Below are positions 27,359 through 57,760 of a stretch of DNA of 64,000 bases, one piece after another. The translations under genes and the position numbers were made by a program. This stretch comes from Gibbula magus (taxonomy: Eukaryota; Mollusca; Gastropoda; Trochida; Trochidae), in contig OW388296.1 in assembly GCA_936450465.1 (NCBI GenBank), positions 17,774,526 to 17,838,525 on the forward strand. Direction: 5' to 3'. Position 1 is the first letter of the stretch; the number at the start of each line of letters is the position of its first letter. The notes under the pieces were generated by a model. The model saw only the letters and a list, made by a program, of their open reading frames with translations. It was not told where the DNA came from and ran no database searches.

Positions 27359-28080
27359 AGGTGCATCCATTATGTTTCATAAAATTGTAACTAGCTTTAA
27401 TACGTTCCAACAGACCATATGTACTGTTTACAATACAAACAAATTCACTCAGCTTGCATATTCATCCCCGTTCGCCAAACATATCATAATTACTAGTTTC
27501 CAATTATAATCGAGTAACATCATTATGCATGTGCAGAAACCGAAAGTGCACGTCCTATTTACCAACTTCCCAATGCAAGGCATAACTCTTGCCAGTCTCC
27601 ATTACTGGCTGATTTAGGCCTTGCAGTATTTCTTAAGAAATCTGTGTTTAGAAATCCAGGCCCGCTATGCATTTCCAGTGCAGCGATTCACTGCCTCGAC
27701 ACAAGAAAGCGAGGGAAATACCGCAAGGGTTAAATCAGCCAGTAATGCAGACTGGCAAGAGTTATGCTTTGCGTTTGGAAGTTGCCTATTTACATGCACA
27801 GTATTTATATGACCTATTGAACATAATCAACCCAAATCTGTTATTTTGGCTGGTTTAAATAAGATTCCAAAATTACGTATGACTCATAGGCGCGCGCCAC
27901 ACCCAGTGCATTGTCCGGTTTTCGATCAGAAATCGATACTTTTACCTTCATCGAGTATCGAGTCGAGTCGAGTATCATCAAAATGGTAGTTTTCGGTATA
28001 ACAGTCGGTACTTCTCGATAAAGTAACACCATTTATAACATTTACAATATGTGATCCCCAACAACACAATGGATGTACAT
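27359..28080 (-). mobile_element. TTAA element (490-bp family), copy C, interrupted by a MITE
   Basis: This is the reverse complement of the two copies at 56734-57220 and 57267-57756. The left end AGGTGCATCCATTATGTTTC and the right end CACAATGGATGTACAT are flanked by TTAA (27355-27358 and 28081-28084). Subtracting the 222-bp MITE and one 9-bp duplicate leaves about 491 bp, the family's normal length. It has no coding capacity; TTAA use is piggyBac- or Kolobok-like. Confidence 0.88.
27563..27784. mobile_element. 222-bp MITE, copy 3, nested in a TTAA element
   Basis: Same family as 2939-3161 and 12171-12393, one base shorter (tatttcttaag against tatttccttaag). The 9-bp duplication cctatttac occurs at 27554-27562 and 27785-27793. 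The uninterrupted equivalent exists once, as gtaaatagg, at 57553-57561, giving a genuine empty site. Confidence 0.95.
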
Positions 28081-28084
28081 TTAA

Positions 28085-29185
28085 GACCTTCTACAATGTG
28101 AATATTTGTTGAAGTATGCATGTACAAATCTATATGTAAGGATTCGTCCAAAATAAGTCTTTTGGAATTGCTTGAATGATCGTTTGGGGTAGTACTTTTG
28201 GACATAATCAGACGTCACAATACGGGAGGTCGCGGTGAAACAATCGGATTGCTAGGCAAACGTGATATCTGCTCATGTGCTCATATCAATAATATTAACT
28301 CGGTTATTTTCAACCATATGGGTAATAAATAAACTTATGCTAATGAGTATTAATACTGTAATCAACTGTTATTATCAGAGCTATGCAGTTAAGAAAATCG
28401 CTTCTGTAACACACGAATATGCAAATGTAATATGACATACAACGTTCAAGAGAATAAACCAAAACTACTAAACCTTATATGTATAATAACATTATAATTC
28501 AATTCAATTTTGATTAAAATATTTAACACATCTGCATTTTCCTTCGTGTTGTTCTTCATCAAATCAAATCACTTGGAATGCATTTTGCTCTGAAGTACAA
28601 GTTACAAGTACATGAGGTTTATTTTTTCTGTCTGCAGTCATGGTTTGACTACAAAATATTTCATCTGATTTGTCAGTGACATTACGTGAACTTCCGCCAA
28701 GAATTTGTGGCAACATCCATTTCACGATTCCAGCAACTTCGCTTTCAAGTCATAACTCGCGCTAATCTCCATCACTGGCTCGAGACTGGTGCGAGTTGAG
28801 ACTTACGACGGACGTTGTGATTCGAAGTAATGTTGATATCCACTGTTCGAGCTCATAAAAGGCAACAGTGTGCAGCCGGCCATGTGACTAATATTTGCGT
28901 TATATTTGTGAACAATCCTTTATATATCTCATTAACTCCAAGTAAGTTTTACACAGTCTCAGCCCAAGAATGAGTCTGTTGCTAACTAGGCAATGACCAT
29001 TGACCATGGTTGACCATGTAAAAGAGCAAGTCTGGGTTGTGTGTGGAGATGATGTTGTCCATCCCTTTAAGTTTATCACCATGTGTTTGTAAACGGTGAC
29101 AAGCAGACCCGTTCTATTCCATGTGGTTTCGTACAGATATCTGCATGTATCATTATTTGCAGAAACTCCATGTCCACAGATAATC
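28085..29185. other. Non-coding stretch
   Basis: About 1.1 kb with no recognised gene or repeat. Confidence 0.5.
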
Positions 29186-32839: not shown

Positions 32840-32848
32840 CTACTGGAT
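32840..32848. repeat. Left 9-bp target duplication of the large foldback element
   Basis: ctactggat here is repeated at 44166-44174, directly outside the inverted termini GGCAGGCTGAAG and CTTCAGCCTGCC. One adjoining base (g) makes the exact edge ambiguous by a single nucleotide. Confidence 0.85.
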
Positions 32849-32894
32849 GGCAGGCTGAAGTTAGTTAGTTATTAGTTATTAGTTATTCGTTATT

Positions 32895-35125
32895 CGAATA
32901 ACGAATAACTAACTGGTTAGTTATTCATTATTCGAATAATGAATAACTAACTGGTTAGTTATTCGTTTTTCGAATATCATGCTGGCTGCTTATTCATTCT
33001 TCAGAGTTGAACAAAGAAGTAAATATAGATATATATTTAGGGTGGAAACTGACAATATGGGGCGGGGAACCTCGTTCATCGATTACATTCAGTAAGCACT
33101 GGCTAGCTTTTCAATATTCGAATAATGAATAACTAACTGGTTAGTTATTCGTTTTTCAAATAACGAATAACTAACTGGTTAGTTATTCGTTTTTCGAATA
33201 TCATGCTGGCTGCTTATTCATTCTTCAGAGTTGAACAAAGAAGTAAATATAGATATATATTAAGGGTGGAAACTGACAATATGGGGTGGGGAACTTCGTT
33301 CATCGATTACATTCAGTAATCACTGGCTAGCTATTCAATATTCGAATAATGAATAACTAACTGGTTAGTTATTCGTTTTTCGAATAACGAATAACTAACT
33401 GGTTAGTTATTCGTTTTTCGAATATCATGCTGGCTGCTTATTCATTCTTCAGAGTTGAACAAAGAAGTAAATATAGATATATATTAAGGGTGGAAACTGA
33501 CAATATGGGGTGGGGAACTTCGTTCATCGATTACATTCAGTAATCACTGGCTAGCTATTCAATATTCGAATAATGAATAACTAACTGGTTAGTTATTCGT
33601 TTTTCGAATAACGAATAACTAACTGGTTAGTTATTCGTTTTTCGAATATCATACTGGCTGCTTATTCATTCTTCAGAGTTGAACAAAGAAGTAAATATAG
33701 ATATATATAAAGGGTGGAAACTGACAATATGGGTTGGGCAACCTCGTTCATCGATTACATTCAGTAATCACTGGCTAGCTATTCAATATTCGAATAATGA
33801 ATAACTAACTGGTTAGTTATTCGTTTATCGAATAACGAATAACTAACTGGTTAGTTATTCGTTTTTCGAATATCATGCTGGCTGCTTATTCATTCTTCAG
33901 AGTTGAACAAAGAAGTAAATATAGATATATATTAAGGGTGGAAACTGACAATATGGGGTGGGGAACCTCGTTCATCCATTACATTCAGTAAGCACTGGCT
34001 AGCTATTCAATATTCGAATAATGAATAACTAACTGGTTAGTTATTCGTTTTTCGAATAACGAATAACTAACTGGTTAGTTATTCGTTTTTCGAATATCAT
34101 GCTGGCTGCTTATTCATTCTTCAGAGTTGAACAAAGAAGTAAATATAGATATATATTAAGGGTGGAAACTGACAATATGGGGTGGGGAACCTCGTTCATC
34201 CATTACATTCAGTAAGCACTGGCTAGCTATTCAATATTCGAATAATGAATAACTAACTGGTTAGTTATTCGTTTTTCGTTTTTCGAATAACTAACTGGTT
34301 AGTTATTCGTTTTTCGAATATCATGTTGGCTGCTTATTCATTCTTCAGAGTTGAACAAAGAAGTAAATATAGATATATATTAAGGGTGGAAACTGACAAT
34401 ATGGGGTGGGGAACTTCGTTCATCGATTACATTCAGTAATCACTGGCTAGCTATTCAATATTCGAATAATGAATAACTAACTGGTTAGTTATTCGTTTTT
34501 CGAATAACGAATAACTAACTGGTTAGTTATTCGTTTTTCGAATATCATGCTGGCTGCTTATTCATTCTTCAGAGTTGAACAAAGAAGTAAATATAGATAT
34601 ATATAAAGGGTGGAAACTGACAATATGGGTTGGGCAACCTCGTTCATCGATTACATTCAGTAATCACTGGCTAGCTATTCAATATTCGAATAATGAATAA
34701 CTAACTGGTTAGTTATTCGTTTATCGAATAACGAATAACTAACTGGTTAGTTATTCGTTTTTCGAATATCATGCTGGCTGCTTATTCATTCTTCAGAGTT
34801 GAACAAAGAAGTAAATATAGATATATATTAAGGGTGGAAACTGACAATATGGGGTGGGGAACCTCGTTCATCCATTACATTCAGTAAGCACTGGCTAGCT
34901 ATTCAATATTCGAATAATGAATAACTAACTGGTTAGTTATTCGTTTTTCGAATATCATGCTGGCTGCTTATTCATTCTTCAGAGTTGAACAAAGAAGTAA
35001 ATATAGATATATATTAAGGGTGGAAACTGACAATATGGGGTGGGGAACCTCGTTCATCGATTACATTCAGTAATCACTGGCTAGCTATTCACTATTCGAA
35101 TAATGAATAACTAACTGGCACGTTA
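32895..35125 (+). repeat. Left arm: 224-bp tandem repeats, 10 units
   Basis: The anchor gagttgaacaaag occurs at 33004, 33228, 33452, 33676, 33900, 34124, 34348, 34572, 34796 and 34982. Spacing is exactly 224 bp, except the last at 186 bp, where a palindromic block was lost. Each unit contains one or two near-palindromes GAATAACTAAC/TGGTTAGTTATTC separated by TTTTTCGAATAAC. Units starting near 33676 and 34572 share private changes (gggttgggca at 33731 and 34627, 896 bp or four units apart), showing a higher-order duplication. Confidence 0.97.
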
Positions 35126-35129
35126 TTCG

Positions 35130-35680
35130 CTTTTCGAATATGTTGCTGGCTGTAAGGCCGCGAGCCTTGTGGGCTCGTAATAGGTCAATCCATTGCCAAG
35201 TTAGTTACTTGTTCGATATTGGTGATTTATGCAGAATACATAGGTTTATATTTCATTAGTAATTGTTAGGTTTTTCCCAGTTATGTCTCAGCTGAAACAA
35301 TGTTCTATATATGGCTGCGAACGTGCACTATTGGCCGGGTTCGTTATAGGTCAATGTGAATCCGTTGCTGAGAGTGTGAAGTTAGTGACTTATTCGATAT
35401 TGGCTGTTGCAGAATACATACTTTTAGTTTATCCTAGAATAAGCATATAATCGAAAATTCTGTCTCAAGGTTAAATCTCAGCTACAACAATTGTTTATAA
35501 ACGGCTACGCAAGTGCAATGTGGGATCTTAAAACTGAATCCGTTCCTATGGTTTTCAAGTTCTTTACTTACTAAAAATTGTATTCTTGTGTATGGATCAC
35601 GTCGCTGACAACGTTTCAGATTATATTGGTTCATAATGAAATTCGAATTATGTTAGGTCCTACCGTAGGTATAAACATCA
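35130..35680. repeat. Left subterminal repeats of the foldback element
   Basis: Two divergent subunits carry ataggtcaat..ccattgc, aagttagt.actt and ttcgatattgg, starting near 35180 and 35345. Inverted counterparts with 'taacttcacactctcag' and 'aacctat' lie at about 38440-38530, 40060-40160 and 40230-40360. The shared order in opposite orientation places them in the inverted arms. Confidence 0.65.
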
Positions 35681-35689
35681 ATCCATACG

Positions 35690-36030
35690 CGTTTTAGGGT
35701 GAGCATGCGTAGTCGATACATAAAACCCACATGTGTACATTTTTATGTGCGTCCATGAGTGCGTTTGTTCATATTTGTGTGCGTGCGTGCATACATATGC
35801 GTTCGTTTTGACTTGTTTACTTGTCTGCGTATTAGCATGTGTATATGCGCATATGTGCATGCTTGTATAACAACTGTAGGTTCGTACACATATGTGTATG
35901 CAAATATAAGCACATGCGTGCGTAAGCATATGTTTGTGCATACGTGTATAAAAGTGCGTTTACACTTGCACGAACTTTCCATCCGCATTTCAAGACCTCA
36001 GTGTGTGCCAATGCGTGAAGCATTGATTAT
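35690..36030. repeat. Alternating purine-pyrimidine tract (left)
   Basis: Dense in TGCGTGCGTGCATACATATG-like words, that is (RY)n with CA/TG/CG steps, a composition able to adopt left-handed DNA. Several overlapping His/Cys/Tyr-rich frames on both strands are composition artefacts. It mirrors the tract at 37480-38345 across the transposase relic. Confidence 0.7.
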
Positions 36031-36289
36031 ATAATTTGTTTACATAACAATGCGCACACCTCCGCATTATTCGCCTGACATTACACCTGATGTATATGTT
36101 GCACATTTGACTCGTAAAATTGTACACGAAGTGCCACGACTATGTTGGGTTCTGTGCACGCATATATTGCGTCTATAATCCGATGAAGTTGCGTTTTGGT
36201 ACGGATTATGTGCAAATGCAGGCACAGGCATGACTAAATCATGCATGCTTGTCAAGATCATGACCTTTTTTTTTATTAACGCTTGGTGT

Positions 36290-36331
36290 ACGGTACTGCC
36301 TGCATTGGAAGTATCTATAAAGGCAGTACCC
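36290..36331. promoter_or_regulatory. Hairpin with TATA-like box upstream of the Harbinger relic
   Basis: GGTACTGCCT and AGGCAGTACC form a hairpin whose loop and right arm include TCTATAAAGG (about 36312-36321), a TATA-like sequence about 55-60 bp before the ATG at 36375. It may be the relic promoter of the transposase. Functional assignment is inference. Confidence 0.35.
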
Positions 36332-36374
36332 CATCTTAAATTAGTTCATCCTCTACTTTCACAAAGTGAACACC

Positions 36375-37230
36375 ATGAACAACTCACAAGATATCGCCAT
36401 TATTGAAGAGAAGAAAAAGGCTCATGTATCTGACATCGTCTACACTTCTTCTTCTTGGAGAAAAAGAAATAATACAGGAAGCAAGAAGATGTCGCAACCT
36501 CACCTCGGAATAGGAAAGCTAGAACATTTTGGTTTGAGAATCATTGACCAAAGACACTCTTTCGGATACTATGGACAGTTACTCACTGAACTTCTCCGTG
36601 GAGAAACAAAATGGTTCTCCGTAGGACCTTTAACCCAGGAATTTTTGATAAGTTAACTCCTCACTTGGAGAAGAAAAAGACTTGCGTGAGAGAACCACTT
36701 GAGGTTGGACTAAAACTAGCAGACACATTCCGCTTCCTTGCCACTTGTGATAGCCACACAAGTCTACAATACAACTTCAGAAGTATTGTTTGCAGAGTCT
36801 GCAAGTTTCTACCCGGGGTTTGCAGAGTCTTCATTGATGTGTTCAAGGTGGAGGTACTAAGGTGCCCCAGAACCCCACAGGAAAATATAAAGGGTTTCAT
36901 GGTTACAGTTCGAGGTGGAACTACCACAAATGCTGGGGAGCTTTGAATGGAAAATATGTTGCCATGAAGAAGCCGGCCAGTGTTGGGTCCTTCTACTACA
37001 AATACAAGGGATTCCACAGCATTGTACTTATGGCCCTTTAAGCTTATAACTACAAATTCTTATATGTTGTCCATTCCTGGGACACCTATGTATACGGGGG
37101 TGATGCATGCTCATTTCTGATTGGTTCGGCCATGTTATTGAAGAAGACTTTGAAAAAGAGACTGAGTACTGAAAATGAAACATCATTGAAGTGCTTTTAC
37201 TGGTTCGATGATATTCGTGTCATTAGCACG
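36375..37230 (+). pseudogene. Decayed Harbinger (HARBI1-like) transposase inside the foldback element
   Basis: The first frame (to 36656) gives FGLRIIDQRHSFGYYGQLLT, like the HARBI1 N-terminus. The second frame (from 36640) gives FDKLTPHLEKKKTCVREPLE, LKLADTFRFLATCDSHTSLQ and VLRCPRTPQE. A third frame (from about 36890) gives WGALNGKYVAMKKPASVG and YKYKGFHSIVLMAL, then a stop and NYKFLYVV. In active enzymes GALDGKH carries the first catalytic Asp; here codon AAT encodes Asn, so catalysis is lost. At least two frameshifts and one stop are present. The segment up to 37230 still resembles the family's middle, and the rest is gone. It may be the element's own former gene or an older nested insertion. 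Confidence 0.82.
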
Positions 37231-37479
37231 GAAAAATACTCACGAATGTTGTCAATTGCCTGAATTGCGTGCCAATTGCTTGACATGCTCAACCTAGTCT
37301 TGCCTTTATCGTGACACAAGAAAACTGTACACGTATTACACGACACCACAGGAATAAGATACGAACAAGTTGATACAAGTTCACGAGTAGATTGCACAAT
37401 TGGCACGCACTGGAGTGGGTGAAGGAATAACAAAACATATGGTTATTTCTTTACGCATGGGTACTTACTCACGTACAGT

Positions 37480-38345
37480 TAATGAATTATTCACGCCGGT
37501 TTGCGATTCAGATACGCATTGCCACGAATTAATGCGTACACATACGTACATATGTATGTTTTCGCAAGTGCTTACGCATATGCGATTGATTAAGTGCATA
37601 GTACACAAATGTGCATACGTGCATATGCACACGTACGCGGTACGCATACGTCATTGTCTGTATATGCATTTATGTGTGTGTGCTGTGATGCGAGTGTGCT
37701 CACGTACGTATGTGGTTGCATACATACTTTCAAAATTAAATACGCATGCATGCCGACAAGCATATACCTATTGACAGAATCAAAGTGATGCGTCGATGCA
37801 CGCAAGGACGTATGTTTAATTCAAACAACATAAACAAGCATCTTCGCAAATATCTAAGCTAGCAAACATGCATGCACACACACTTCTGTACACTGATCGA
37901 AAGCATGCACTCACTCACGAGCATAATTACACCAGTCTGTGCATATGCATGCATCCACGAATGCAAACGTACATGCATGCACATATGCACTTATGTCCGT
38001 AAGCGTATGTATGTCCGTATATGCGTACGCATGTGACTATACACGCACGCACATGTATAGTCTTTTAAATGCACGCACAAACATTTACTTTCTTACGCAA
38101 GTATTTTTCCTTATGCAGGCATGAATGTATGTGTATGCAAGTACGTATGCTTACATATGCATGCATGCAAGTACAAACGAATGAATACGTAGGCAAGCAC
38201 GACTGCATGTATGAACATACTTATGGAAGCACACACGCATGTACGCATACACTCAACTTAAGTAACCTTTTGCAAGTACGTAAGCGTACACAGGTACATA
38301 ATTGTACGCACGTACATCCTCTTACGCACACATGCACGTAGGCAT
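37480..38345. repeat. Alternating purine-pyrimidine tract (right)
   Basis: About 870 bp dominated by GCATACGTACATATGC-like words with frequent tacgca/tgcgta. Open frames on both strands are low-complexity artefacts. Its position mirrors 35690-36030, but the tract is longer. Confidence 0.7.
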
Positions 38346-38399
38346 CGGATGTACGCATGCATACCCATGTATTTATCCGTAGCATTGTAGTAGCTGTGA

Positions 38400-38670
38400 T
38401 ATACCCCAGAGACAGACCTAACATGTGCTTATATACCTATGTATTCTGAAACGGGTGCCAGTAACGTTTTCTATGCATACATCATCAATAATGAATAAGT
38501 TATTAACTTCACACTCTCAGTAACCTATATCAGGGACCTTATATAGAGGGATTAGAAACTAATCAATTAGCTCGCGGAGCTTCCCTCGTCATGGTCCAAC
38601 GCACATCTTGACTTGGCGCCCGTATTGCGCTAATTACTTGCGTAGCACACTAGTATATCCAGTTAATCAA
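38400..38670. repeat. Right subterminal repeats, inner block
   Basis: Contains 'gacctaacatgtgct', 'acgggtgccagtaacg', 'atgcata' and 'taacttcacactctcag' in the same order as blocks at 40030-40140 and 40205-40360. Thus at least three divergent copies lie in this half of the element. Confidence 0.65.
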
Positions 38671-38900
38671 TCCGCCATCTTGTCTGTAAGGAGTTTAGAT
38701 AATATGTGTAATGGTTCGAGGGGGGTCCAAAACTTTTACTTTTACCGGAGACAATAAATTCTAAAATATTATATGCGGTTAAAATAGCGAGTCAGTCCTC
38801 CATCTTGTCTGTACGGATTTCTGATTATATGTGTAAAGGTTCGAGAGGGGTCCAAAACTTTTACTTTCACCGAAGACAATAAATTCTAAAATATTAATTT
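38671..38900 (+). repeat. Two 125-bp tandem copies
   Basis: ccatcttgtctgta...ggttcga...gggtccaaaacttttact...gacaataaattctaaaatatt occurs twice, starting at 38671 and 38796, with point differences. It is not found elsewhere in the window. Confidence 0.85.
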
Positions 38901-39146
38901 AGCGAAAGATGAATAGTTTTCTGATGCATCTGCAACATTTTATTTGATTTGATTCACGTAAAAGTAGTCTGAGAACGAGTCACTAAGCAAGGTTTGGTGA
39001 CGTCAAGAATATACATATATGGGTAATAAATACATTTTTCTCACAGTGGTATATTTCATATATCATTACAACAATCAACAGTCTCAAAGGGAGGTTACAC
39101 TAGTGTTTCTTGACTATACAAAGATTGCCGATTGCCGCACGAGCGA

Positions 39147-39403
39147 GCCGGTGTAAGATTGAAAATATACCCGCGTTGAAAACATACCTGGCGGGTACTT
39201 TTTCAACGTTGAATAATGACCCGGAGTCACTTTTCAACGCCTCGGGTCTTTTGTCAACGTTAAATGACTACCCAGACGGATAGATATTCAACTTTGAAAA
39301 TACACCCAAGGTGTTGAAAAGTGACCCTGAGTCATAATTTAACGTTGAAATTATACCCGCCGGTGTGTTTTCAAAGCGGGTACATTTTCTGTCTTACACC
39401 GGC
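39147..39403. mobile_element. 257-bp full-length foldback MITE (GCCGGTGTAAGA ends)
   Basis: The left end GCCGGTGTAAGA and right end TCTTACACCGGC are exact complements. The arms run nearly to the centre through CGGGTATTTTTCAACG-like words (TTCAACGTTGAA, TTTTCAACGCC) that also repeat within each arm. It sits inside the 11.3-kb element and therefore is younger than, or travelled with, that element. Confidence 0.85.
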
Positions 39404-39572
39404 AAGACTCGGAGACGTCAACTGGTAACAACAATATACTGCGATAACAAAATAAGCGCTTATGCAAGCACCCAGTCGCTTGTGCGTTGAAGCGCGACGA
39501 GCATTTGTCAAATTGCACCGCTCAGTAAAAATGATCATGAAAGGAGCAGAAGAGACGAGTCCCTCTATTTAA

Positions 39573-39927
39573 AGGCGCTGTAGCACGTTTTTTCGCTCAA
39601 ATAAGTCGATGAAATGTATTTGAAAAATAATGTCAACAATAGTAAAACACCCTTCTCTCTTCGGAAAATCAAGTTACAAATGAATGTATATGGTTCCGTA
39701 AAGCCATGGGAATTTCTTTTTGTCATTCGAAATAATAAAATGTGTTCACAATAAAATGGCCGCCATGCAATTTTGGCTTTATACGCAACACCGTTATTAC
39801 CACTACGGATAATTGGTTTGTTTAATAAAATGTTTTACCCTCTGAAGTAAATATAAATGACATAAACTATCAATATAAATGAGAAATTTGAAAAAATAAA
39901 ATTTGCAAAAAACGTGCTACAGCGCCT
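39573..39927. mobile_element. 355-bp TTAA MITE with AGGCGCTGTAGCACG ends
   Basis: Terminal inverted repeats AGGCGCTGTAGCACGTTTTT and AAAAACGTGCTACAGCGCCT are flanked by TTAA at 39569-39572 and 39928-39931. A partial copy in the opposite orientation is at 49249-49441 (shared 'gtaaaacattttatt', 'ttatacgcaacaccg' segments). No coding potential. Confidence 0.87.
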
Positions 39928-39934
39928 TTAAGGT

Positions 39935-40685
39935 CCCTGCCTATACAGATTGACCAAAATGAGCCCACAATGCACGTTTACGGCCGTATATAAAGCAGTA
40001 TCAAAGCTTAGATACACTGCAACGAAAGACCTAACATGTGCTAATTCAAATATGAACCTATATTTTTCAACGGACGCCCATGCATAAATCGCCTATTTCG
40101 AATAAGTAGTTAACTTCACACTCTCAGCAAATTATTCAGATTAACCTATGACACAACGGGCGTTCGAGGCCATAACTAAAACTTTATTATAGCTAAGATG
40201 AACCCTAGAGACAAAGCTAATATATGCTGATTCAATATAAACCTAAGTATTATGAACGGGTGCCAGTGACGTATTCTATGCATAAATCGACATTATCGTA
40301 AAAGTAACAAACTTCACAGTCTTACAGACGGATTCAAACTGACCTATAATTATGTTCGCGGAGCACGTTCTTCATCCTTTATACATCATTATTATAGTTC
40401 ACATGAACGTTTTAGTAAGTGTTACATTTATTGTATTGAATCAGATTTAAACAAAACAATTTTTAAACGGCTACTGTACATCGTGAAGAGCTCTGTTCAG
40501 CTACTACGTTATTGACTGTCTGGTATAAGAATATCTATACACAATATAGGAACGTTAATATCGTTCACAGTATCTAATATTGATTAATGAACTAACAACA
40601 ATTATAAATTCAATTTGCTAAAAACTGTTTTCGCTAGGTTCACATTTCGAAAAACACATAAGGAAGTGTAAATAATTCGTTCACT
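39935..40685. repeat. Right subterminal repeats, outer blocks
   Basis: Two divergent copies of the subterminal block (about 40030-40165 and 40205-40375) carry the words listed at 38400-38670. The inverse-orientation partner is 35130-35640. The remainder is AT-rich without features. Confidence 0.6.
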
Positions 40686-40689
40686 TCAC

Positions 40690-43600
40690 AGACCAAGTCC
40701 TTACTGAATGTAATCGATGAACGAGGTTCCCCACCCCATATTGTCAGTTTCCACCCTTAATATATATATCTATATTTACTGCTTTGTTCAACTCTTAAGA
40801 ATGAATAAGCAGCCAGCATGATATTCGAAAAACGAATAACTAACCAGTTAGTTATTCGTTATTCGAAAAACGAATAACTAACCAATTAGTTATTCATTAT
40901 TCGAATATTGAATAGCTAGCCAGTGCTTACTGAATGTAATCGATGAACGAGGTTCCCCACCCCATATTGTCAGTTTCCACCCTTAATATATATATCTATA
41001 TTTACTGCTTTGTTCAACTCTTAAGAATGAATAAGCAGCCAGCATGATATTCGAAAAACGAATAACTAACCAGTTAGTTATTCGTTATTCGAAAAACGAA
41101 TAACTAACCAATTAGTTATTCATTATTCGAATATTGAATAGCTAGCCAGTGCTTACTGAATGTAATCGATGAACGAGGTTCCCCACCCCATATTGTCAGT
41201 TTCCACCCTTAATATATATATCTATATTTACTGCTTTGTTCAACTCTTAAGAATGAATAAGCAGCCAGCATGATATTCGAAAAACGAATAACTAACCAGT
41301 TAGTTATTCGTTATTCGAAAAACGAATAACTAACCAATTAGTTATTCATTATTCGAATATTGAATAGCTAGCCAGTGCTTACTGAATGTAATCGATGAAC
41401 GAGGTTCCCCACCCCATATTGTCAGTTTCCACCCTTAATATATATCTATATTTACTTCTTTGTTCAACTCTGAAGAATGAATAAGCAGCCAGCATGATAT
41501 TCGAAAAACGAATAACTAACCAGTTAGTTATTCGTTATTCGAAAAACGAATAACTAACCAGTTAGTTATTCATTATTCGAATATTGAATAGCTAGCCAGT
41601 GCTTACTGAATGTAATCGATGAAGGAGGTTCCCCACCCCATATTGTCAGTTTCCACCCTTAATATATATCTATATTTACTTCTTTGTTCAACTCTTAAGA
41701 ATGAATAAGCAGCCAGCATGATATTCGAAAAACGAATAACTAACCAGTTAGTTATTCGTTATTCGAAAAACGAATAACTAACCAGTTAGTTATTCATTAT
41801 TCGAATATTGAATAGCTAGCCAGTGCTTACTGAATGTAATCGATGAACGAGGTTCCCCACCCCATATTGTCAGTTTCCACCCTTAATATATATCTATATT
41901 TACTTCTTTGTTCAACTCTGAAGAATGAATAAGCAGCCAGCATGATATTCGAAAAACGAATAACTAACCAGTTAGTTATTCGTTATTCGAAAAACGAATA
42001 ACTAACCAGTTAGTTATTCATTATTCGAATATTGAATAGCTAGCCAGTGCTTACTGAATGTAATCGATGAAGGAGGTTCCCCATCCCATATTGTCAGTTT
42101 CCACCCTTAACATATATCTATATTTACTTCTTTGTTCAACTCTGAAGAATGAATAAGCAGCCAGCATGATATTCGAAAAACGAATAACTAACCAGTTAGT
42201 TATTCGTTATTCGAAAAACGAATAACTAGCCAGTTAGTTATTCATTATTCGAATATTGAATAGCTAGCCAGTGCTTACTGAATGTAATCGATGAACGAGG
42301 TTCCCCACCCCATATTGTCAGTTTCCACCCTTAATATATATCTATATTTACTTCTTTGTTCAACTCTGAAGAATGAATAAGCAGCCAGCATGATATTCGA
42401 AAAACGAATAACTAACCAGTTAGTTATTCGTTATTCGAAAAACGAATAACTAACCAGTTAGTTATTCATTATTCGAATATTGAATAGCTAGCCAGTGCTT
42501 ACTGAATGTAATCGATGAAGGAGGTTCCCCATCCCATATTGTCAGTTTCCACCCTTAACATATATCTATATTTACTTCTTTGTTCAACTCTGAAGAATGA
42601 ATAAGCAGCCAGCATGATATTCGAAAAACGAATAACTAACCAGTTAGTTATTCGTTATTCGAAAAACGAATAACTAGCCAGTTAGTTATTCATTATTCGA
42701 ATATTGAATAGCTAGCCAGTGCTTACTGAATGTAATCGATGAACGAGGTTCCCCACCCCATATTGTCAGTTTCCACCCTTAATATATATCTATATTTACT
42801 TCTTTGTTCAACTCTGAAGAATGAATAAGCAGCCAGCATGATATTCGAAAAACGAATAACTAACCAGTTAGTTATTCGTTATTCGAAAAACGAATAACTA
42901 ACCAGTTAGTTATTCATTATTCGAATATTGAATAGCTAGCCAGTGCTTACTGAATGTAATCGATGAAGGAGGTTCCCCACCCCATATTGTCAGTTTCCAC
43001 CCTTAATATATATCTATATTTACTTCTTTGTTCAACTCTGAAGAATGAATAAGCAGCCAGCATGATATTCGAAAAACGAATAACTAACCAGTTAGTTATT
43101 CGTTATTCGAAAAACGAATAACTAACCAGTTAGTTATTCATTATTCGAATATTGAATAGCTAGCCAGTGCTTACTGAATGTAATCGATGAAGGAGGTTCC
43201 CCACCCCATAATGTCAGTTTCCACCCTTAATATATATCTATATTTACTTCTTTGTTCAACTCTTAAGAATGAATAAGCAGCCAGCATGATATTCGAAAAA
43301 CGAATAACTAACCAGTTAGTTATTCGTTATTCGAAAAACGAATAACTAACCAGTTAGTTATTCATTATTCAAATATTGAATAGCTAGCCAGTGCTTACTG
43401 AATGTAATCGATGAAGGAGGTTCCCCACCCCATATTGTCAGTTTCCACCCTTAATATATATCTATATTTACTTCTTTGTTCAACTCTGAAGAATGAATAA
43501 GCAGCCAGCATGATATTCGAAAAACGAATAACTAACAAGTTAGTTATTCGTTATTCGAAAAACGAATAACTAACCAGTTAGTTATTCATTATTCAAATAT

Positions 43601-44140
43601 TGAATAGCTAGCCAGTGCTTACTGAATGTAATCGATGAAGGAGGTTCCCCACCCCATATTGTCAGTTTCCACCCTTAATATATATCTATATTTACTTCTT
43701 TGTTCAACTCTGAAGAATGAATAAGCAGCCAGCATGATATTCGAAAAACGAATAACTAACCAGTTAGTTATTCGTTATTCGAAAAACGAATAACTAACCA
43801 GTTAGTTATTCATTATTCGAATATTGAATAGCTAGCCAGTGCTTACTGAATGTAAGCGATGAACGAGGTTCCCCACCCCATATTGTAAGTTTCCACCCTT
43901 AATATATATCTATATTTACTTCTTTGTTCAACTCTGAAGAATGAATAAGCAGCCAGCATGATATTCGAAAAACGAATAACTAACCAGTTAGTTATTCATT
44001 ATTCGAATAGTGAATAACTAACCAGTTAGTTATTCATTATTCGAAAAACGAATAACTAACCAGTTAGTTATTCGTTATTCGAATAACGAATAACTAACCA
44101 GTTAGTTATTCGTTATTCGAATAACGAATAACTAATAACT
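40690..44140 (-). repeat. Right arm: 224-bp tandem repeats inverted, 15 units
   Basis: The anchor actct after gttca occurs at 40791, 41017, 41243, 41467, 41691, 41915, 42139 and then every 224 bp to 43931. The first two intervals are 226 bp, owing to an extra TA in the tatata stretch. Units are the reverse complement of the left-arm units. Arm-specific variants such as gaaggaggttcc mark many right units but no left unit. A variant pair (ccatccc) recurs 448 bp (two units) apart at 42081 and 42529, so homogenisation is mostly within the arm. Confidence 0.97.
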
Positions 44141-44165
44141 AATAACTTGCTAACTTCAGCCTGCC

Positions 44166-44174
44166 CTACTGGAT
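44166..44174. repeat. Right 9-bp target duplication of the large foldback element
   Basis: ctactggat, identical to 32840-32848. Confidence 0.85.
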
Positions 44175-44229
44175 GACAACAGGAGGCATTTATTACTGGC
44201 TATTCAATGTTTGCTCTGAGCTGTCTTAA

Positions 44230-44266
44230 ATGTGCATCCATTGTGTTTTTGGGGGTCACACATGCT
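44230..44266. mobile_element. Terminal fragment of the 490-bp TTAA family
   Basis: TTAA (44226-44229) followed by GTGCATCCATTGTGTTTTTG then GGGGTCACACATG resembles the end of the elements at 56734 and 57267. The rest of the element is absent. Confidence 0.45.
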
Positions 44267-45297: not shown

Positions 45298-46290
45298 AGC
45301 TCCTAAGAGGACTGACCCCTTCTTGGTCTGGTTGGGGGGACCACCTTCGTCTGAGCGAACGCTTGTGGACCCAGCCTAGAGATGCCTTCGAGATCTGCTG
45401 TGGAGACATCTCGTAGGTAATGGTTGGCGAAAACCTTTGAGGAACGCCAAAAACACCCCGCCATGACGTCCGAGACCGCGATATTACAGTGGTAAGCCAT
45501 CGTGGCTGAAACTGCACTGATCTCATGCGGGTTGGAACGCGAAGGAGGAGGCAGGTCATCGGCCTTGTACGCATCAATGACAGCCGACCTCAGGTACACC
45601 CCCAACGCTCGCTTATCTAGCTCTTTGGTGCTCCTCGGCGAGTGAGGCAAGAACAGACGACGCCTGCCATCCCTCAGCTTGCGGGTACGCTGCAGGTACA
45701 CCCTCAAAGCCCTAATCGGACACAGAGAGAGATCCACCTCTCCTGAGTCAGAACCCAGAGCCGGAATAGAGAAAGTACGGCCAGCCTCATCAGCTGCCTG
45801 GTTTTTGCAGACAAAGTCGGGAGCTAAACCAAGTAAGGCTGACCCCCCTCCCTGACCTCAAAGCGTAGAAGGTCCGCCTGCAAGGCATGGATCTCAGAAA
45901 TCCGAGCTGCAGAGGCCATGGCCACCAGAAAAATGACCTTGATGGTGAGAGGGAGGAGGGGTACGTCGAAGAGCGGTTCATACGTATCGGAGCGAAGATG
46001 ATTGAGCACAATTGCTAAGTCCCACTCAGGTGGACGAAGCTTCGTCCTGCCGTCAGCAGAACGGAAGGTTTTAACAAGGCCCTTGAGGACCGACTTATCT
46101 AACCCTGGCGACGTCTTCCTGAGAACGGAGAGGATAGCAGACATGATGGTATTAATTGATGACGCCTTAAGATGCCTGGTGTTGCGTAGGTACACTAAGT
46201 ACTCCGCAACCTGAGGAACTGAGGCCTCTGCCGGGATGAAATCCTTCTGAGCACAGAAGGAGGCGAAGGCCATGAGAGGTAGCTATGGCA
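45298..46290 (-). pseudogene. DIRS tyrosine recombinase, box II arginine changed to serine
   Basis: The N-terminal half (46273-45824) reads AEYLVYLRNTRHLKASSINT, then the core start with ASAARISEIHALQ (R of box I visible in AARISE). A frameshift near 45835 leads to LAPDFVCKNQAADEAGRTFS and VDLSLCPIRALRVYLQRTRK. The C-terminal part reads NPHEISAVSATMAYH then AGCFWRSSKVFANHYL, the last with the expected nucleophile Tyr. DIRS recombinases normally have HxxR; here the fourth position is Ser (codon AGT), one base from Arg. So the enzyme is doubly damaged. The product would have integrated circular cDNA. Confidence 0.85.
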
Positions 46291-46321
46291 TTGGCGACGC
46301 ACCTTGAGTAACCACTGCTCC

Positions 46322-47140
46322 TTAACCCTCTCTTAATACAAGCCAAGTGTGACGGCAGAACACCTGAGGGTTCTCTCGTAACCTTCCGCTTGGCCTGCTG
46401 AGGAGCAGATCTCTCCGTGGCTGAATCGGAACAGGTTCCTGATGACAGAGCCGCCGGAGAGGAACGAACCACGGTCGGGCTGGCCACCAAGGGGCGACCA
46501 GAAGAAGTCGAAGAACCCGAGTTGTCCCTATCTTGGCAACCACTTGGGAGAGGATGGCCGGCGGCGGAAAAGCATAGGCGTCCATCCCCTCCCACCCTAA
46601 CGAGAGCGCATCTAAGCCCATCGCTAGCGGGTCTGGTACTGGAGAGACATAGGTTGGCAATTGGTGATTGAGACATGTCGCGAACAGGTCTATCAGAGGC
46701 GTGCCGAACTGGAGACACAACCCCCTGAAGACTACCGGGTTCAGTTGCCACTCCGTCGGGGGAGGGGCATCTGGTCGCGACAGCGCGTTCGCCAAGATGT
46801 TCTTGGCACCTGGAATGTGGACTGCTCGAATGTCCAGGTCCACTTCGTCCACCAGCTCGAAGAGCCAGAGCGACACGCGTAGCAGAGACTATGCCCTGGT
46901 GCGCCCCCCACCCCTAGGTGGAGGCGTCTCCAAACAGGTGAGCTTAGGGGGGACGAGGGCAAAGTGGAACCCCGGAGAACACACTCTCGTCCACCCGCCA
47001 CCAAGCTAGGAAGCGATGGAGATCTGGGGTCAGAGCTATGGCGTGACGGCAACGCGTCTCCCTGATGTGGGGATTCAGGAACACCTGTAATGGGCGGAGG
47101 AACAACCTCCCCCTGCGGGTCAGGTCCTGAGCTGACGTTA
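46322..47140 (-). pseudogene. DIRS RNase H region and linker (broken)
   Basis: The minus frame from 46876 gives DLDIRAVHIPGAKNILANAL then SRPDAPPPTEWQLNP, IDLFATCLNHQLPTYVSPVP and GWEGMDAYAFPPP. This is the RNase H-proximal region typical of DIRS and related polymerases (HIPG..N..AD.LSR, here NAL). Upstream frames near 47000-47140 (RRGRLFLRPLQVFLNP) are the connection from the lost reverse transcriptase. Frameshifts join the parts. The region 46167-46320 (LACIKRGLRSSGYSRCVANA) leads to the recombinase. Confidence 0.8.
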
Positions 47141-47149
47141 GCAACTCTT

Positions 47150-47300
47150 TGCAACTGTTTCGCGATTTCGTGTCGCTGTTTCGCGATTTCGTGTCGCTGT
47201 TTCGCGATTTTGTGTCGCTGCTTCGCGATTTCATGTCCCTGTTTCGCGATTTCGTTTTTATTTTTTCGCGATTTCGCGATTTCGTGTTGGAAAGTTAACA
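47150..47300. repeat. CGCGATTTCGTGTCGCTGTTT minisatellite
   Basis: About six or seven imperfect units of 18-21 bp with TTTCGCGATTTCGTGTCGCTG content (47157-47295). It directly borders the DIRS truncation point. Confidence 0.88.
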
Positions 47301-47374
47301 CGAAATCAAATGGCCCCTCTCTATGGTGGCTGATTTTTGCCATTCGCGTCTTCGCTACTTCGTGTTATTAGAAT

Positions 47375-47605
47375 CTAGTGCGAAATAGCGAAGTGGCGAT
47401 GCGAAGTAGCGAAGACGCGATGCGAAGTAGCGAAAATGCGATGCGAAGTAACGAAAAGGCGATGCGAAGTAGCGATGCGAAATTGCTAAATAGCGAAGAT
47501 TTTTGCTTCGCTACTTCTCATCGCCACTTCGCTACTTCTCATCGCCACTTCGCTATTTCGCATCGCCACTTCGCTTCTTCGTTCCATCGTGTCTTCGCTA
47601 CTTCA
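47375..47605. repeat. Inverted pair of GCGAAGTAGCGAT minisatellites
   Basis: The left half (47379-47500) repeats GATGCGAAGTAGCGAA. The right half (47507-47600) repeats its complement form TTCGCTACTTCTCATCGCCA. The two halves can pair into a long hairpin of about 230 bp. Open frames reading MRSSE and HFATSHR are artefacts. Confidence 0.85.
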
Positions 47606-49669: not shown

Positions 49670-50705
49670 CGAGGGGCGCTCAATAAAGCTTTCCCCCTGA
49701 CCAACTACTCTTAACCGGAAGAAGTAGAAATTTCACATGTGATATGTAGCATGTCTCCATAGGTCAAGTAATGTCTCATACTTTTAAAATATTCATTCTT
49801 TCTGTCAGCACAGGTCTTAGAGTTAGAGTAGAGTAAGGTGTACACATGGAGGTACAGAGTACAGAGCGGTTATCAGGTTTTTATTCTTGAAGGGTCGTAC
49901 ACCAAAGGAGACTTTTGATGAGATGAAAGAAACTTATGGAGAGATGGTCCCATCGTATGACGTTGTCAAACACTGGCATCGTCAGTTCAATTGTGATCGG
50001 ACCTCCGTGGAAACAGCTTCAATTCCAGGTCGACCCCAGTCAGCCATTGACGATGACTCTATCAGGCAAGTGGAAGCTGCAATTTTGGAAGATCGCCGAA
50101 TTACTGTCCATCAACTTGCCCAAGAAAATCCTTCAATGCCATTTGCCAGTTGTCAGCTCGGTGGATGCCCCGACTGCTCACACCTTTCCAAAAACAGGAA
50201 CGAGTCAAAAGTTCTTTTAGCAATGTGCCAAGAAAACCAGGATACCTTTTTCGACAGACTAATCACACAGGATGAGCATGGGTCCGTCACTATGACCCTG
50301 AAAGCAAAATCCAGTCAAAGCAGTGGAAACTACCAAAACCGAGAGACAGGACAATGCTCCTGTCCACAACTAACGTGTAGCTCAGACGGAAGCGCAGGCC
50401 TGTGGCTATGAAATACTTCCTCACCCACCGTATTCTCCTGACCTTGCACCATCTGATTACTTCCTCTTCCCAAACATGAAGTCATTTTTGAAAGGCACTC
50501 GTTTTACTGATGATGAAACCCTCTTTAATGAGGTCAAGTCCTGGGTTTTGACAAGATCTGATGCCTTTTACAAGAAAGGCCTTGAAGGCTGCATCAAGTG
50601 ATAAGAAAAATGTGTCTCAATGTGTGGTGGCTATATGTAGAGAAAGACTAATAACTGTACCAAGTTTCGTTTCTTTTAGTAGAAATTTTTATTGAACGCC
50701 CCTCG
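49670..50705 (+). mobile_element. mariner (Tc1/mariner) element, defective
   Basis: Inverted ends CGAGGGGCGCTCAATAAA (49670) and TTTTATTGAACGCCCCTCG (to 50705), with TA at 49668-49669. The right TA is mutated to CA. Length is about 1.04 kb, shorter than the usual roughly 1.3 kb, because internal parts of the transposase are deleted. Confidence 0.9.
49887..50600 (+). pseudogene. mariner transposase
   Basis: The first 80 or so residues are the paired-like helix-turn-helix DNA-binding region: KGRTPKETFDEMKETYGEMV, then PGRPQSAIDDDSIRQVEAAI (minor-groove GRPQ motif). A deletion around residue 90-100 removes the part before the first catalytic Asp. Then FFDRLITQDE is seen with the first catalytic region, followed by frameshifted traces of the YDPE block. 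The 3' end reads HPPYSPDLAPSDYFLFPNMK, the expected YSPDLAPSDYFLFP block with the last catalytic Asp. Many breaks make it inactive. Confidence 0.88.
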
Positions 50706-52003: not shown

Positions 52004-52089
52004 TCTGATGTATGAAGAGGAACCTTTTAGACCATATTTTACAGTCTGGGAATTCAAACAATAAACCAATGGGGTATTAATGTATACAC

Positions 52090-52269
52090 TTAGCTCATTG
52101 AATTATATTTATTTAATTTACCTTTACATAGTATAGTTACATATCGTTATGGGAAAGCATTTGTCTAAATGATTAATATAAAAATAACTTCGTGTGGTTG
52201 ATTTGGTGTCATATAGGTAATTGTATATTTAAACACTTCACTTATAGAGAGAGGACTTGAAACTAGCTG
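52090..52269 (+). repeat. 180-bp direct repeat, left copy, flanking the LINE
   Basis: Identical by eye, base for base, to 55591-55770. It begins ttagctcattgaattata and ends gacttgaaactagctg. The interpretation as an exceptionally long target-site duplication is inference. Confidence 0.93.
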
Positions 52270-52272
52270 AGA

Positions 52273-53898
52273 GTAGAGAGTATTGTTGTCAACTCTGATT
52301 ATGTCATAGCTATCAAACTTAGCAAGTGTAACTATTGTGATGTTTACGTCATTGCTTGTCGGCTACCGTCAACTAATGTATTGCATGCAACTTACTGTAG
52401 TGCTCTATGCGAGTTGTTAGATTTGTATGACTACTTATCTGAAAGGGGTTTAACTTTTATTCTAGGCGATCTAAACTCTGACATATGTAAGCGCCAGCTA
52501 TCTCACAGAGACAAGATCGTGAAGGCTGATCTATTAGACAGATATCTTGTTAATGCACTTAAAATACTACCTACATCCTCAGTGGGATATACGTGTAGGT
52601 CGAAAAATAATCTGCTAAAAAGTATGATTGATTACATACTTATACCATCATGCCTAAGCAGATCTGTTTCTAGTGCAACGATAGATGACACTTGTCCTTT
52701 TAGTGTATCGGATCACCTACCTTGCTCTGTATCCATAAGTATTCCAGTGAAGGAAACCTTTAAGAATGTGTCAATTGGCATTCCTAAGTGGAAACTAGCT
52801 AATGAAAATGATATCAACTCTTATCAAAGATTACTAGAGGACTTCTTGTCTTCTCAGAATGCTTCTCAGTTAGATTTCAGTCAGCAAAATAGTATAGACC
52901 ACTACAACGATATGATAAGTTCTGCTTTATTGTATGCATCCACTAATGCTATACCTCGCAGTAATTATAGACCATATTTAAAACCTTTTTGGAAACCTAA
53001 TAACTTAAATGATGCTCACTATGAAATGCGAGTAGCTAGGCGTGAATGGATTAGAAGCGGGAAACCCCGTGAACATGACTCTGAAGAACGTTTGGCCTAT
53101 AAATATGAAAAACGAAAATTTCGACGTTTGCTCCGGAAATCAAAACGATCTTATAAACATGAAATGTTAAAGGAAATAGAAATATCTGCTGAATTGGACG
53201 TAAATACGTTTTACAAAACTGTTCGAAAGCAACGAGCAGTAGTTACAAATACATCTACACTTGTTTACGGGGATGAAATCGGCTCAACGCCATCGGAAGT
53301 ATGTAAAATATGGGGCAAATACTATGCTGACCTAGCTCAACCACATGAATCAGAAGCATTTGATGTTCACTTCAAAAACCATATATCTAAATTAGTTCGG
53401 GATATTAATAACAGCAGTGAGGACTACGATGATGATCTAGAGAGAAACTTTCTATTTCATGAGGTGAAGGATGTTGTTAAGTCTCTCAGCAAAAACAAAT
53501 CCCCTGGTCCTGACAAAATTACCAACGAGCATATTATATATGCAGGCGATGTATGCATTAATCATATTTGTAAGCTCTTCAACCACATGATTGAATCTCA
53601 GTATGTTCCATATGACCACAGACTTGGAATGGTAATATCAATTTACAAGGGTAAGAATGATAAAACTGACCCACGAAACTATAGGGGTATCACCTTAACA
53701 TCTTGCCTCGGCAAATTATTTGAAAAACTGTTGCTGAGACGGATTGAAAATAAATTACTTGAAACAAATCCTGAATTCCCTGATAAGCTACAATTTGGAT
53801 TTCGTAAAGAACACGGAGCAATTATGTCTGTGTTTACTCTCATGGAAAGTATTCAGTATATAATCATAGAGATTCCCCTGTGTTTGCAGCCTTTCTAG
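52273..53898 (+). pseudogene. LINE endonuclease (3' part) and first RT half
   Basis: This reads from an internal point of the APE-like endonuclease: LTFILGDLNSDI (GDxN motif), MIDYILIPS, then SVSDHLPCSV (SDHxP motif), so the C-terminal half of the nuclease is kept and its N-terminal half truncated. After about 200 linker residues the RT begins: KSLSKNKSPGPDKITNEHI, DPRNYRGITLTSCLGKLFEK and LQFGFRKEHGAIMSVFTLME. It ends out of frame at 53898 because about one base is missing near 53865. The downstream RT frame opens at 53880. Numbered from the methionine at 52381, the frame has 505 codons. Confidence 0.88.
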
Positions 53899-55442
53899 AC
53901 AACGCAAAAGCTTTCGATAGAATATGGCACGATGGTCTATTCTACAAACTTTATGAACTTGGTATCAGAGGTAATGTCTGGAAACTATTACATCATTGTT
54001 ATACAAATAGCCAATCTTTTGTCGCACACCAGGGGGAGAGGTCAGAAACCTATCTAGTCAAACAAGGTGTAGGGCAAGGAAGAGTTATATCCTCTTGGTT
54101 CTTTCTCATTTTTATTAATGGCCTAATAACATCTTTAAGACAAGCTAACTGTGGTATAAATGTATTTGATATGGACGTTCCGTCTGTCTTGCTTGCTGAT
54201 GATACTACACTAGTCAGTACATCACCTAATAGCCTACAAGCATCACTTGATATTGTCTCTTCATACGCCTGCAAATGGCGTTTAACATATAACCCATCAA
54301 AAAGTACCATTATCGTTTTTAGCAAAAAAAAAGGCTATGATACTAATTTTCATTTTAAACTTGGTGACATCCCAATCCCCTCATCAGAATCAACAGTATA
54401 TGGAGGTGTACTATTTACATGTAACCTTTCCACAAAAACTAGAAGTGAAAAGTATTGTCAGAAAGCAAGACAGAATATAAACTCTCTAAGATCTATTGGA
54501 TTGAATGATTCTAGCCTTCATCCATTTACGTGTGTAAAAATATGGCTCCGAATGATTCTTACAACTAGCCTCTATGGCTGTGAAGTATTAGCAAATATCA
54601 AAGGCCAGCAAGCAGACATTTTTGAGCAAACACAAAGGTATTTTGCTCGACTTGTACAAGGTCTTGATAAAAGATCATCTTCAATATCTACCATTGCAAA
54701 CCTGGGGTTATGTTCGCTTATAGGTTATATCGATAAATGTAAGCTTCTATTTCTTGGTCGACTATGTAACACTGGGTGTAACAACTTTGCAAAGCATATA
54801 TTTTGTGCTGCTATCACAGCTACAGTTAAATCCAATAATATATGTGATGATCTTTTATCAACATCTAAAAAGTATAATCTAAATGCACATGTTAACAAAT
54901 ATATTGCGCAAGGCACATTTCCTCCGAAAGATGTATGGAGAAAAATTGTAAATACTACTGTACATAATTATGAAGAACAATTGTGGCGTTCGCAAACTTC
55001 CTATCGTTCAAATATGTCATTTTATGCATCAATTCATACGAGACTCTCTTATCATATTCTATGGCAACTAGCATATAAATACCCAAATTATAAATCTCCC
55101 TTGCAACTTTGTGTCAAAATATCATCAAGAGGTAAAATATCAAGAGAGTGTACTCTTTGTAATAAACAAACGTTTGACTATGATTTGCATGTACTTCTCC
55201 ACTGTGAAACTTTATTACACCAACGAAATACTTTCTTTGCTTATCTAATTGACAAACTTGATGTTGAAACCTATGTAATGTTCGAAATGCAAGATGAACA
55301 AGATATGTTATCATTTCTGTTTGGAGCAGAAACTAACTTTTATCACACAATTGATTCAGTATTATGGGAACATATTTTGTTACGCTTTTCACTGTACGTA
55401 TATGAACTTAAACCTCACTTTGTCAACTGCTACAATGCATAA
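53880..55442 (+). pseudogene. LINE RT second half and C-terminal domain
   Basis: This continues the RT after the frameshift. Motif A is FAAFLDNAKAFDRIWHDGLF (Asp present), then VKQGVGQGRVISSWFFLIFI, and motif C SVLLADDTTLVS (both Asp present). YNPSKSTIIVFSKKK and YGGVLFTC follow. The last 150 residues include a cysteine-rich end, RECTLCNKQTFDYDLHVLLH then CETLLHQRN. It ends with a stop at 55440-55442, then a 3' UTR of about 125 bp with AATAAAG. 520 codons are open without further breaks. Confidence 0.9.
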
Positions 55443-55590
55443 TACACTTGATGTCCATTATTGCTGTATATAAATCTGTAAATATGCAAAAAGTGTATAT
55501 CCATGCCTATTTTGTAATATAATGTAATGTATTTCCATATGTAATCTTCGGTAAATACTGGAGGAAATAAAGACTCTCTCTCTCTCTCTC

Positions 55591-55770
55591 TTAGCTCATT
55601 GAATTATATTTATTTAATTTACCTTTACATAGTATAGTTACATATCGTTATGGGAAAGCATTTGTCTAAATGATTAATATAAAAATAACTTCGTGTGGTT
55701 GATTTGGTGTCATATAGGTAATTGTATATTTAAACACTTCACTTATAGAGAGAGGACTTGAAACTAGCTG
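55591..55770 (+). repeat. 180-bp direct repeat, right copy
   Basis: Starts directly after the (TC)n tail of the LINE and equals 52090-52269. The sequence then diverges into ctacgcagtgttttgg. Confidence 0.93.
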
Positions 55771-57220: not shown

Positions 57221-57266
57221 TTAACAACACAATCAAGGGGTAGATCGTTATTTCTTGCCATTTTAA

Positions 57267-57756: not shown

Positions 57757-57760
57757 TTAA

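What the first reader, a model, noticed from the sequence alone, without database searches (positions are those of the whole stretch)
32849..44165. 11.3-kb foldback element with opposed satellite arms and 9-bp target duplication
Seen: exact inverted 16-bp termini, arms made of one 224-bp tandem repeat (10 against 15 units) in opposite orientation, inner subterminal repeats also inverted, and ctactggat directly outside both ends. Known: Drosophila FB elements have tandem-repeat inverted arms and 9-bp duplications. Inference: this is a large foldback-type DNA transposon of a family I do not recognise, possibly undescribed. It is the strongest candidate for a new system in this window.
Basis: partly seen in the sequence, partly recalled or inferred. 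Interest (0 to 1): 0.93.

Follow-up and report, generated by a model that had tools for sequence, protein, structure and literature searches.

The report
Sea snail foldback jumping DNA family
The 11.3-kb stretch is one copy of a recently active family of jumping DNA, most likely from a sea snail, whose two ends are mirror-image stacks of one short repeat; no working gene was found in it, so something else in the genome probably moves it, and it suggests how a tiny transposon can grow into satellite DNA.

Summary

It is a dispersed family. The exact terminus occurs 181 times, the reversed control 0 times. Of 43 terminus pairs tested, 32 have an exact 9-bp duplication, 5 an exact 10-bp one, 1 has one mismatch, 5 have none. 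The roughly 5.5-kb interior recurs, whole or in large part, in 18 of 20 other copies; a 2-kb piece differs from consensus by 0.1-0.7%. It holds a Harbinger transposase fragment that is broken in the consensus too: a passenger.

Best reading: a non-autonomous foldback transposon moved in trans, most likely by a Mutator-like (MULE) transposase. That enzyme was not found: 0 of 98 MULE places on C1-C11 lay within 60 kb of a listed terminus. Copies with duplications range from 65 bp to 36 kb. A 287-bp copy, without a duplication, is one repeat unit between termini, so the satellite unit looks like a MITE body. New member of a known kind.

The parts
32840..32848 (.). left copy of the 9-bp target site duplication CTACTGGAT
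44166..44174 (.). right copy of the 9-bp target site duplication CTACTGGAT
32849..44165 (.). whole foldback element, 11,317 bp
32849..32864 (+). left terminus GGCAGGCTGAAGTTAG (exact part of the inverted repeat; followed by TT)
44150..44165 (-). right terminus (exact inverted copy; followed by CA on the inner side)
32880..35152 (+). left satellite arm: 224-bp units made of 38-bp palindromic steps plus a spacer; 10 anchors
40696..44135 (-). right satellite arm, same unit inverted; 15 anchors
35198..35426 (+). left inner diverged repeats (spaced about 180 bp)
39942..40349 (-). right inner diverged repeats, inverted to the left set
38391..38533 (-). further inner repeat in the orientation of the right set
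36345..37260 (+). broken HARBI1-like (PF13359) transposase fragment in several frames, shared by other copies; passenger
38667..38896 (+). 105-bp tandem duplication, 90% alike; more copies in L045
39147..39403 (.). 257-bp self-complementary stretch (80%), shared in whole or part by many of the other copies
39569..39931 (.). 363-bp MITE with 25-bp inverted ends beginning TTAA; missing from the other copies whose stretch covers this place, where 39580 joins 39927

Best explanation
The stretch is a full, recently inserted copy of a non-autonomous foldback DNA transposon. SHOWN: the same termini bound many dispersed elements, most of those tested flanked by 9-10 bp target duplications; no intact transposase was found in the interior; arms range from a few units to tens of units and left and right lengths vary independently; a 65-bp element made of little but the two termini has a perfect 9-bp duplication. 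INFERRED: a transposase made elsewhere binds the terminus (about 30 bp suffice, judging by the 65-bp copy), cuts the element out and inserts it at a 9-bp staggered cut that host repair fills in. The arms began as the body of a roughly 290-bp MITE, grew by unequal exchange or slippage in 38-bp and 224-bp steps, and were inverted against each other by recombination between opposed copies; repeated palindromes may serve as extra transposase-binding sites. INFERRED with less certainty: the transposase is Mutator-like (MULE).
For: Terminus count 86 + 95 against 0 + 0 for the control. Duplications at 43 pairs: 32 exact 9 bp, 5 exact 10 bp, 1 with one mismatch, 5 none; the 32 nine-base duplications are all different and AT-rich at positions 4-7. 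Interior found, whole or in large part, in 18 of 20 other fetched copies; a 2,051-bp piece differs from consensus by 0.10-0.73% in 19 copies, the window's included. The Harbinger frames are broken in the consensus as well. The interior ORFs of 60 aa or more that I scanned gave no Pfam match over cut-off, and no stop-to-stop frame of 150 aa or more was seen in the fetched parts of 20 copies except a Harbinger piece in L053 and a reverse transcriptase insertion in L062; so movement is in trans. Arms of 12 whole copies: 2-20 anchors left, 2-15 right, spacing mostly 224 with about 186 and 262. 65-bp L083 with GAGAATAAA on both sides. 287-bp L090: 220 bp match one circularly permuted unit at 94%. 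For MULE: 8-11 bp duplications are given as characteristic of MULEs (PMC6446971, passages), most foldbacks seem to belong to Mutator (PMC4079207 section 16), and the genome has 150 scored PF10551 places over cut-off, many with long open frames.
Against: No transposase gene was found with these termini: of the 98 scored MULE places on C1-C11, the nearest lies 64.7 kb from a listed exact terminus (random placement gave a median minimum of 32 kb). The 52 scored places on C12-C18 were left out, only 150 of 454 candidates were scored and only 100 of 181 termini were listed. The 9-bp duplication alone does not identify the superfamily. Five of 43 pairs lack a duplication, and so do the short forms that carry the MITE-body idea: L090 and L091 and the one-direction arrays L114 and L115. 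No empty site was found for any of 12 copies in the DNA held. Units are hardly more alike within one arm (1.73%) than between copies (1.80% same side), so arm growth within each copy after insertion is not the main source of unit variety.
Confidence: 0.88

Rival explanations
1. A non-autonomous foldback as above, but moved by a transposase of another superfamily that also makes duplications of about 9 bp.
For: No MULE with the same termini was found. [quoted passage not shown]
Against: Galileo is flanked by 7-bp sites and Harbinger duplications are 3 bp (recalled). An exact 9-10 bp duplication in 37 of 43 pairs fits MULEs best.
Confidence: 0.25
2. An autonomous or recently autonomous Harbinger element whose own transposase moved the family.
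For: A HARBI1-like fragment lies in the interior (best hit P0001, 55% identity over 75% of the joined query, E 8.8e-54).
Against: The frames are broken in the consensus of 19 copies; the DGK motif of the four relatives printed reads NGK here; duplications are 9-10 bp, not 3 (3 bp recalled). L056, L061 and L083 have no interior yet have duplications.
Confidence: 0.02
3. An assembly artefact or a one-off inverted segmental duplication.
For: Inverted satellite arms are hard to assemble, and one N run lies elsewhere in the window (17249-17448).
Against: No N in the element or in the fetched parts of 20 copies; 43 pairs on many chromosomes, 38 with exact or one-mismatch duplications; HiFi assembly.
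Confidence: 0.01

Closest known systems
Tetris (Drosophila virilis foldback; PMC4079207: abstract, section 10 and part 1 of section 16 read)
   Same: Long inverted arms with roughly 220-bp tandem repeats in variable number, 8-10 bp target duplications, no conserved ORF, autonomous partner not found, ends shared with a simpler element (DAIBAM), repeats also found in satellite arrays.
   Different: Other phylum. Tetris arms are up to 1,735 bp with an external flanking domain up to 866 bp; here about 30 bp of terminus lead straight into repeats, arms reach tens of units, copies reach 36 kb, and the unit contains 38-bp palindromes. No sequence comparison was possible.
Foldback (FB) elements of Drosophila melanogaster
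   Same: Inverted arms of tandem repeats, variable arm length, variable interior, 9-bp duplications (recalled).
   Different: FB arm repeats are short (recalled); no sequence comparison was made; no counterpart of the FB partner NOF (recalled) was seen.
Tm1 Mutator/Foldback family of root-knot nematodes (PMC3169594, passages)
   Same: Composite arms of variable length, 9-bp duplications, transposase-coding, MITE-like and cargo-carrying members in one family.
   Different: Repeats of about 14 bp, asymmetric 7-bp terminal motifs, and a transposase-coding group is known; here none was found.
Galileo subfamily F (Drosophila mojavensis; PMC3573991, passages)
   Same: About 210-bp tandem repeats in the arms, different numbers in the two arms of a copy.
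   Different: P superfamily, 7-bp duplications, two or three repeats per arm in the passages read.

Membership tests
Foldback-type element (structural class) | Long terminal inverted repeats made of tandem repeats | tested here: met
Foldback-type element (structural class) | Arm length variable between copies and between ends, interior variable or absent | tested here: met
Foldback-type element (structural class) | Dispersed copies with target site duplications | tested here: met
   37 of 43 exact (9-10 bp), 1 with one mismatch, 5 none:
MULE (Mutator) superfamily | 8-11 bp target duplication (PMC6446971) | tested here: met
   exact 9 or 10 bp in 37 of 43 pairs:
MULE (Mutator) superfamily | MULE-type transposase encoded by an element with the same termini | tested here: inconclusive
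   0 of 98 scored places on C1-C11 within 60 kb of a listed terminus; 52 scored places on C12-C18 not compared; 150 of 454 candidates scored and 100 of 181 termini listed
PIF/Harbinger | 3-bp target duplication (recalled) | tested here: not met
   duplications are 9-10 bp:
PIF/Harbinger | Intact Harbinger transposase | tested here: not met
   frames broken in the window and in the consensus of 19 copies:
P superfamily (Galileo) | 7-bp target duplication | tested here: not met
   9-10 bp:
Tetris | Sequence similarity to Tetris termini or TIR-220 | not testable with these tools
Drosophila FB | Sequence similarity to FB4 arms | not tested

The most novel reading that the evidence does not exclude
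One genome preserves the whole path from a bare 65-bp transposon, through a 287-bp MITE whose body is a single satellite unit and short single-direction arrays, to inverted-arm foldbacks of 6.6-20 kb and a 36-kb copy that is satellite at 11 of 13 sampled points. The 65-bp, 1-kb, 6.6-20-kb and 36-kb forms have exact target duplications; the 287-bp form and the single-direction arrays do not. The palindromic arms would then be active parts (arrays of transposase-binding or synapsis sites) that free transposition from size, so that a cut-and-paste system carries and seeds satellite DNA of tens of kilobases.
Probability: 0.3. Interest if true: 0.7.

Novelty: new member of a known kind. Interest (0 to 1): 0.5.

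Why it matters
Whether satellite DNA arises inside transposons is argued from cases such as Tetris. Here a young family (interior 0.1-0.7% from consensus) shows one unit as the body of a small element, as short arrays and as inverted arms of many units, with exact target duplications at sizes from 65 bp to 36 kb though not at every intermediate form. That makes two questions directly testable: do more units help or hinder transposition, and do arms lengthen before, during or after a jump. The 36-kb copy with its exact duplication is a large size for a foldback to have moved at.

Tried and rejected
Harbinger as the motor was rejected: broken in the consensus, wrong duplication length. The 20-kb copy on C9 was fetched as a possible autonomous element; it is the same interior, inverted, with 28 and at least 33 units. 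The 36-kb pair on C6, a second such candidate, was sampled by 13 pieces of 120 bp: 5 of 5 at +3.6 to +13.4 kb and 6 of 6 at +20.6 to +32.6 kb are satellite, one at +18.2 kb is family interior at 87.5%, one at +15.8 kb matches nothing held. Two singleton termini that leave the satellite early (L076, L088) were followed for 7 and 10 kb; no inverted partner terminus within 4 mismatches and no open frame over 156 aa. Scanning prokaryote species contigs for the 16-bp terminus gave 36 stretches, fewer than the roughly 120 that a random 16-mer would give in 257 billion bases (my arithmetic), so taken as chance; viral contigs gave none for two arm patterns. Host clues from a reverse transcriptase were not decisive. 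Empty sites: no joined flank of 12 copies was spanned by other DNA held. Independent homogenisation of each arm was expected and not clearly seen. Rfam: nothing at the gathering threshold.
Full report
What was checked. The termini, the 9-bp duplication, the 224-bp arms and their opposition are in the sequence at the stated coordinates. The left arm has 10 anchors of the unit, the right 15. Inner repeats are inverted too, at 67-83% identity. The exact 16 bp are followed by TT on the left and CA on the right; the first 70 bases of the two ends agree otherwise, and further in they differ in the number of 38-bp steps.

Host. The window lies on contig C8 of a genome of 1,470,318,725 bases in 140 contigs. 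The size and the lengths of C1-C11 returned with the stretches match the Gibbula magus genome note (PMC10394393, passages); that note counts 151 scaffolds. The identification is mine, by those numbers. The assembly there used 35-fold HiFi reads and Hifiasm.

A family. The exact terminus occurs 86 times forward and 95 times reverse; the reversed control 0 and 0. Only the first 100 places were listed (C1 to C12:26.3 Mb). Among them I paired 33 neighbouring opposed termini 0.5-36 kb apart, plus 2 listed termini whose partner is imperfect (L061, L063); all 35 were tested, with 8 more copies from C13-C17 first seen. Of the 20 copies fetched, L054 and L055 were not tested for want of the right end. 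Result for 43 pairs: 32 exact 9-bp duplications, 5 exact 10-bp, 1 with one mismatch, 5 without. The 32 nine-base sites are all different.

Anatomy of copies. Eighteen of the 20 fetched copies carry the interior, whole or in large part; L056 (1,022 bp) and L061 (2,747 bp) are arms only. In 12 whole copies anchors number 2-20 on the left and 2-15 on the right, with spacings mostly 224 and otherwise mostly close to 186 or 262, i.e. 224 minus or plus 38. A 20.1-kb copy has 28 and at least 33 units (the last few hundred bases were not in the stretch). A 36,039-bp pair has an exact duplication and is satellite at 11 of 13 sampled points. Nine of the 20 copies lack 35101-35853 and seven have about 346 extra bases near 35684, which suggests at least two subfamilies (read by eye).

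Interior. It carries a HARBI1-like fragment: the separate pieces gave no Pfam match; the pieces joined with X reach PF13359 only below its cut-off (14.4 against 24.8 bits) but hit 78 of 170 candidate proteins at E <= 0.001. The frames are broken in the consensus of 19 copies, so the passenger was most likely dead before the family spread. Other interior ORFs gave no match or matches far below cut-off. The 363-bp TTAA-ended MITE at 39569-39931 is missing from the other copies whose stretch covers the place; they run from 39580 to 39927.

Ends and arms. The subterminal TT or CA marks left and right arms. Of 43 pairs, 34 have one of each, 7 have two left and 2 two right ends. Of these nine like-ended pairs, 5 have an exact duplication (L061, L062, L113, L116/L117, L140/L141), 1 has one mismatch (L119/L120) and 3 have none (L102/L103, L114, L125/L126). 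So arms are probably exchanged now and then before a jump, and some copies look like recombinants. The other two pairs without a duplication (L064/L108, L115) have unlike ends. For 155 units from the 12 copies the mean difference is 1.73% within an arm, 2.01% between arms of a copy, 1.80% between copies on the same side and 2.05% between copies on opposite sides; a unit's nearest relative is in the same arm in 23% of cases (shuffled 5%, highest of 200 shuffles 10%) and on the same side in 78% (no shuffled baseline run). Most unit variety therefore seems to predate the burst, with some local duplication; the window arms show such duplications (L3 and L7 alike; R1-R3 identical).

Where the satellite came from. 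Twenty of the 32 unpaired termini in the list were sampled. Sixteen run into the repeat, by eye; L076, L083, L088 and L089 do not or do so only briefly. L083 is a complete 65-bp element with an exact 9-bp duplication. L090 is a complete 287-bp element in which 220 bp match exactly one circularly permuted unit at 94%; its far end has one mismatch and it has no target duplication. L091 (399 bp) is a small inverted form, also without a duplication. L115 (542 bp) and L114 (1,326 bp) look like arrays mainly in one direction, without duplications. The series suggests that the unit is the body of a MITE; the direction of change, MITE to satellite rather than the reverse, is inferred.

Transposase. 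The genome has 150 scored MULE places over the Pfam cut-off, of 454 candidates. None of the 98 on C1-C11 is near a listed terminus (nearest 64.7 kb); the 52 on C12-C18 could not be compared. A separate 223-bp palindromic MITE in this window, with other termini, has exact 9-bp duplications at all three copies, so a 9-bp system of some kind has been active here. MULE is the best guess on duplication length and on the literature, not a demonstrated fact.

Known or new. Tetris of Drosophila virilis is closest in build; Tm1 and Galileo F share parts. Six literature searches listed no foldback family of gastropods; the one paper listed with both Gibbula magus and transposable elements was not read. 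The library lacks most subscription papers and Repbase was not searchable. I call it a new member of a known kind, unusual in size range.

Noticed in passing
window 2939-3161, 12171-12393, 27563-27784: A 222-223-bp self-complementary MITE (ends CAACTTCC) in three copies 95-97% alike, each with an exact 9-bp target duplication; the third sits in a repeat whose unoccupied relative is at 57263-57760.
   Followed up: partly
window 52089-52269 and 55590-55770: Identical 181-bp direct repeats flank an endonuclease-reverse transcriptase element (52267-55442), odd for a non-LTR retrotransposon.
   Followed up: partly
window 8107-11551: About 93 copies of a 37-bp repeat, open in several frames up to 1,203 aa.
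   Followed up: no
window 15264-17448: An 11-bp purine-rich array of about 183 copies that ends at a 200-base N run, probably an assembly gap.
   Followed up: no
window 45303-47604: ORFs with a phage-integrase N-terminal match below cut-off beside 21-bp repeat arrays, perhaps a tyrosine-recombinase retroelement.
   Followed up: no
window 49827-50411: Fragment with a Mos1-type HTH domain, probably a mariner remnant.
   Followed up: no
G000 contig C10, beyond 68 Mb: 9 of the 18 listed exact termini on C10 lie in its last 9.5 Mb, 7 of them unpaired.
   Followed up: no
window 44223-44263: A 40-bp motif just outside the element recurs at 28047-28087 and 57263-57301 at the edge of another repeat family.
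   Followed up: no
L062 5277-7115: One family copy carries a reverse transcriptase insertion in its interior.
   Followed up: no
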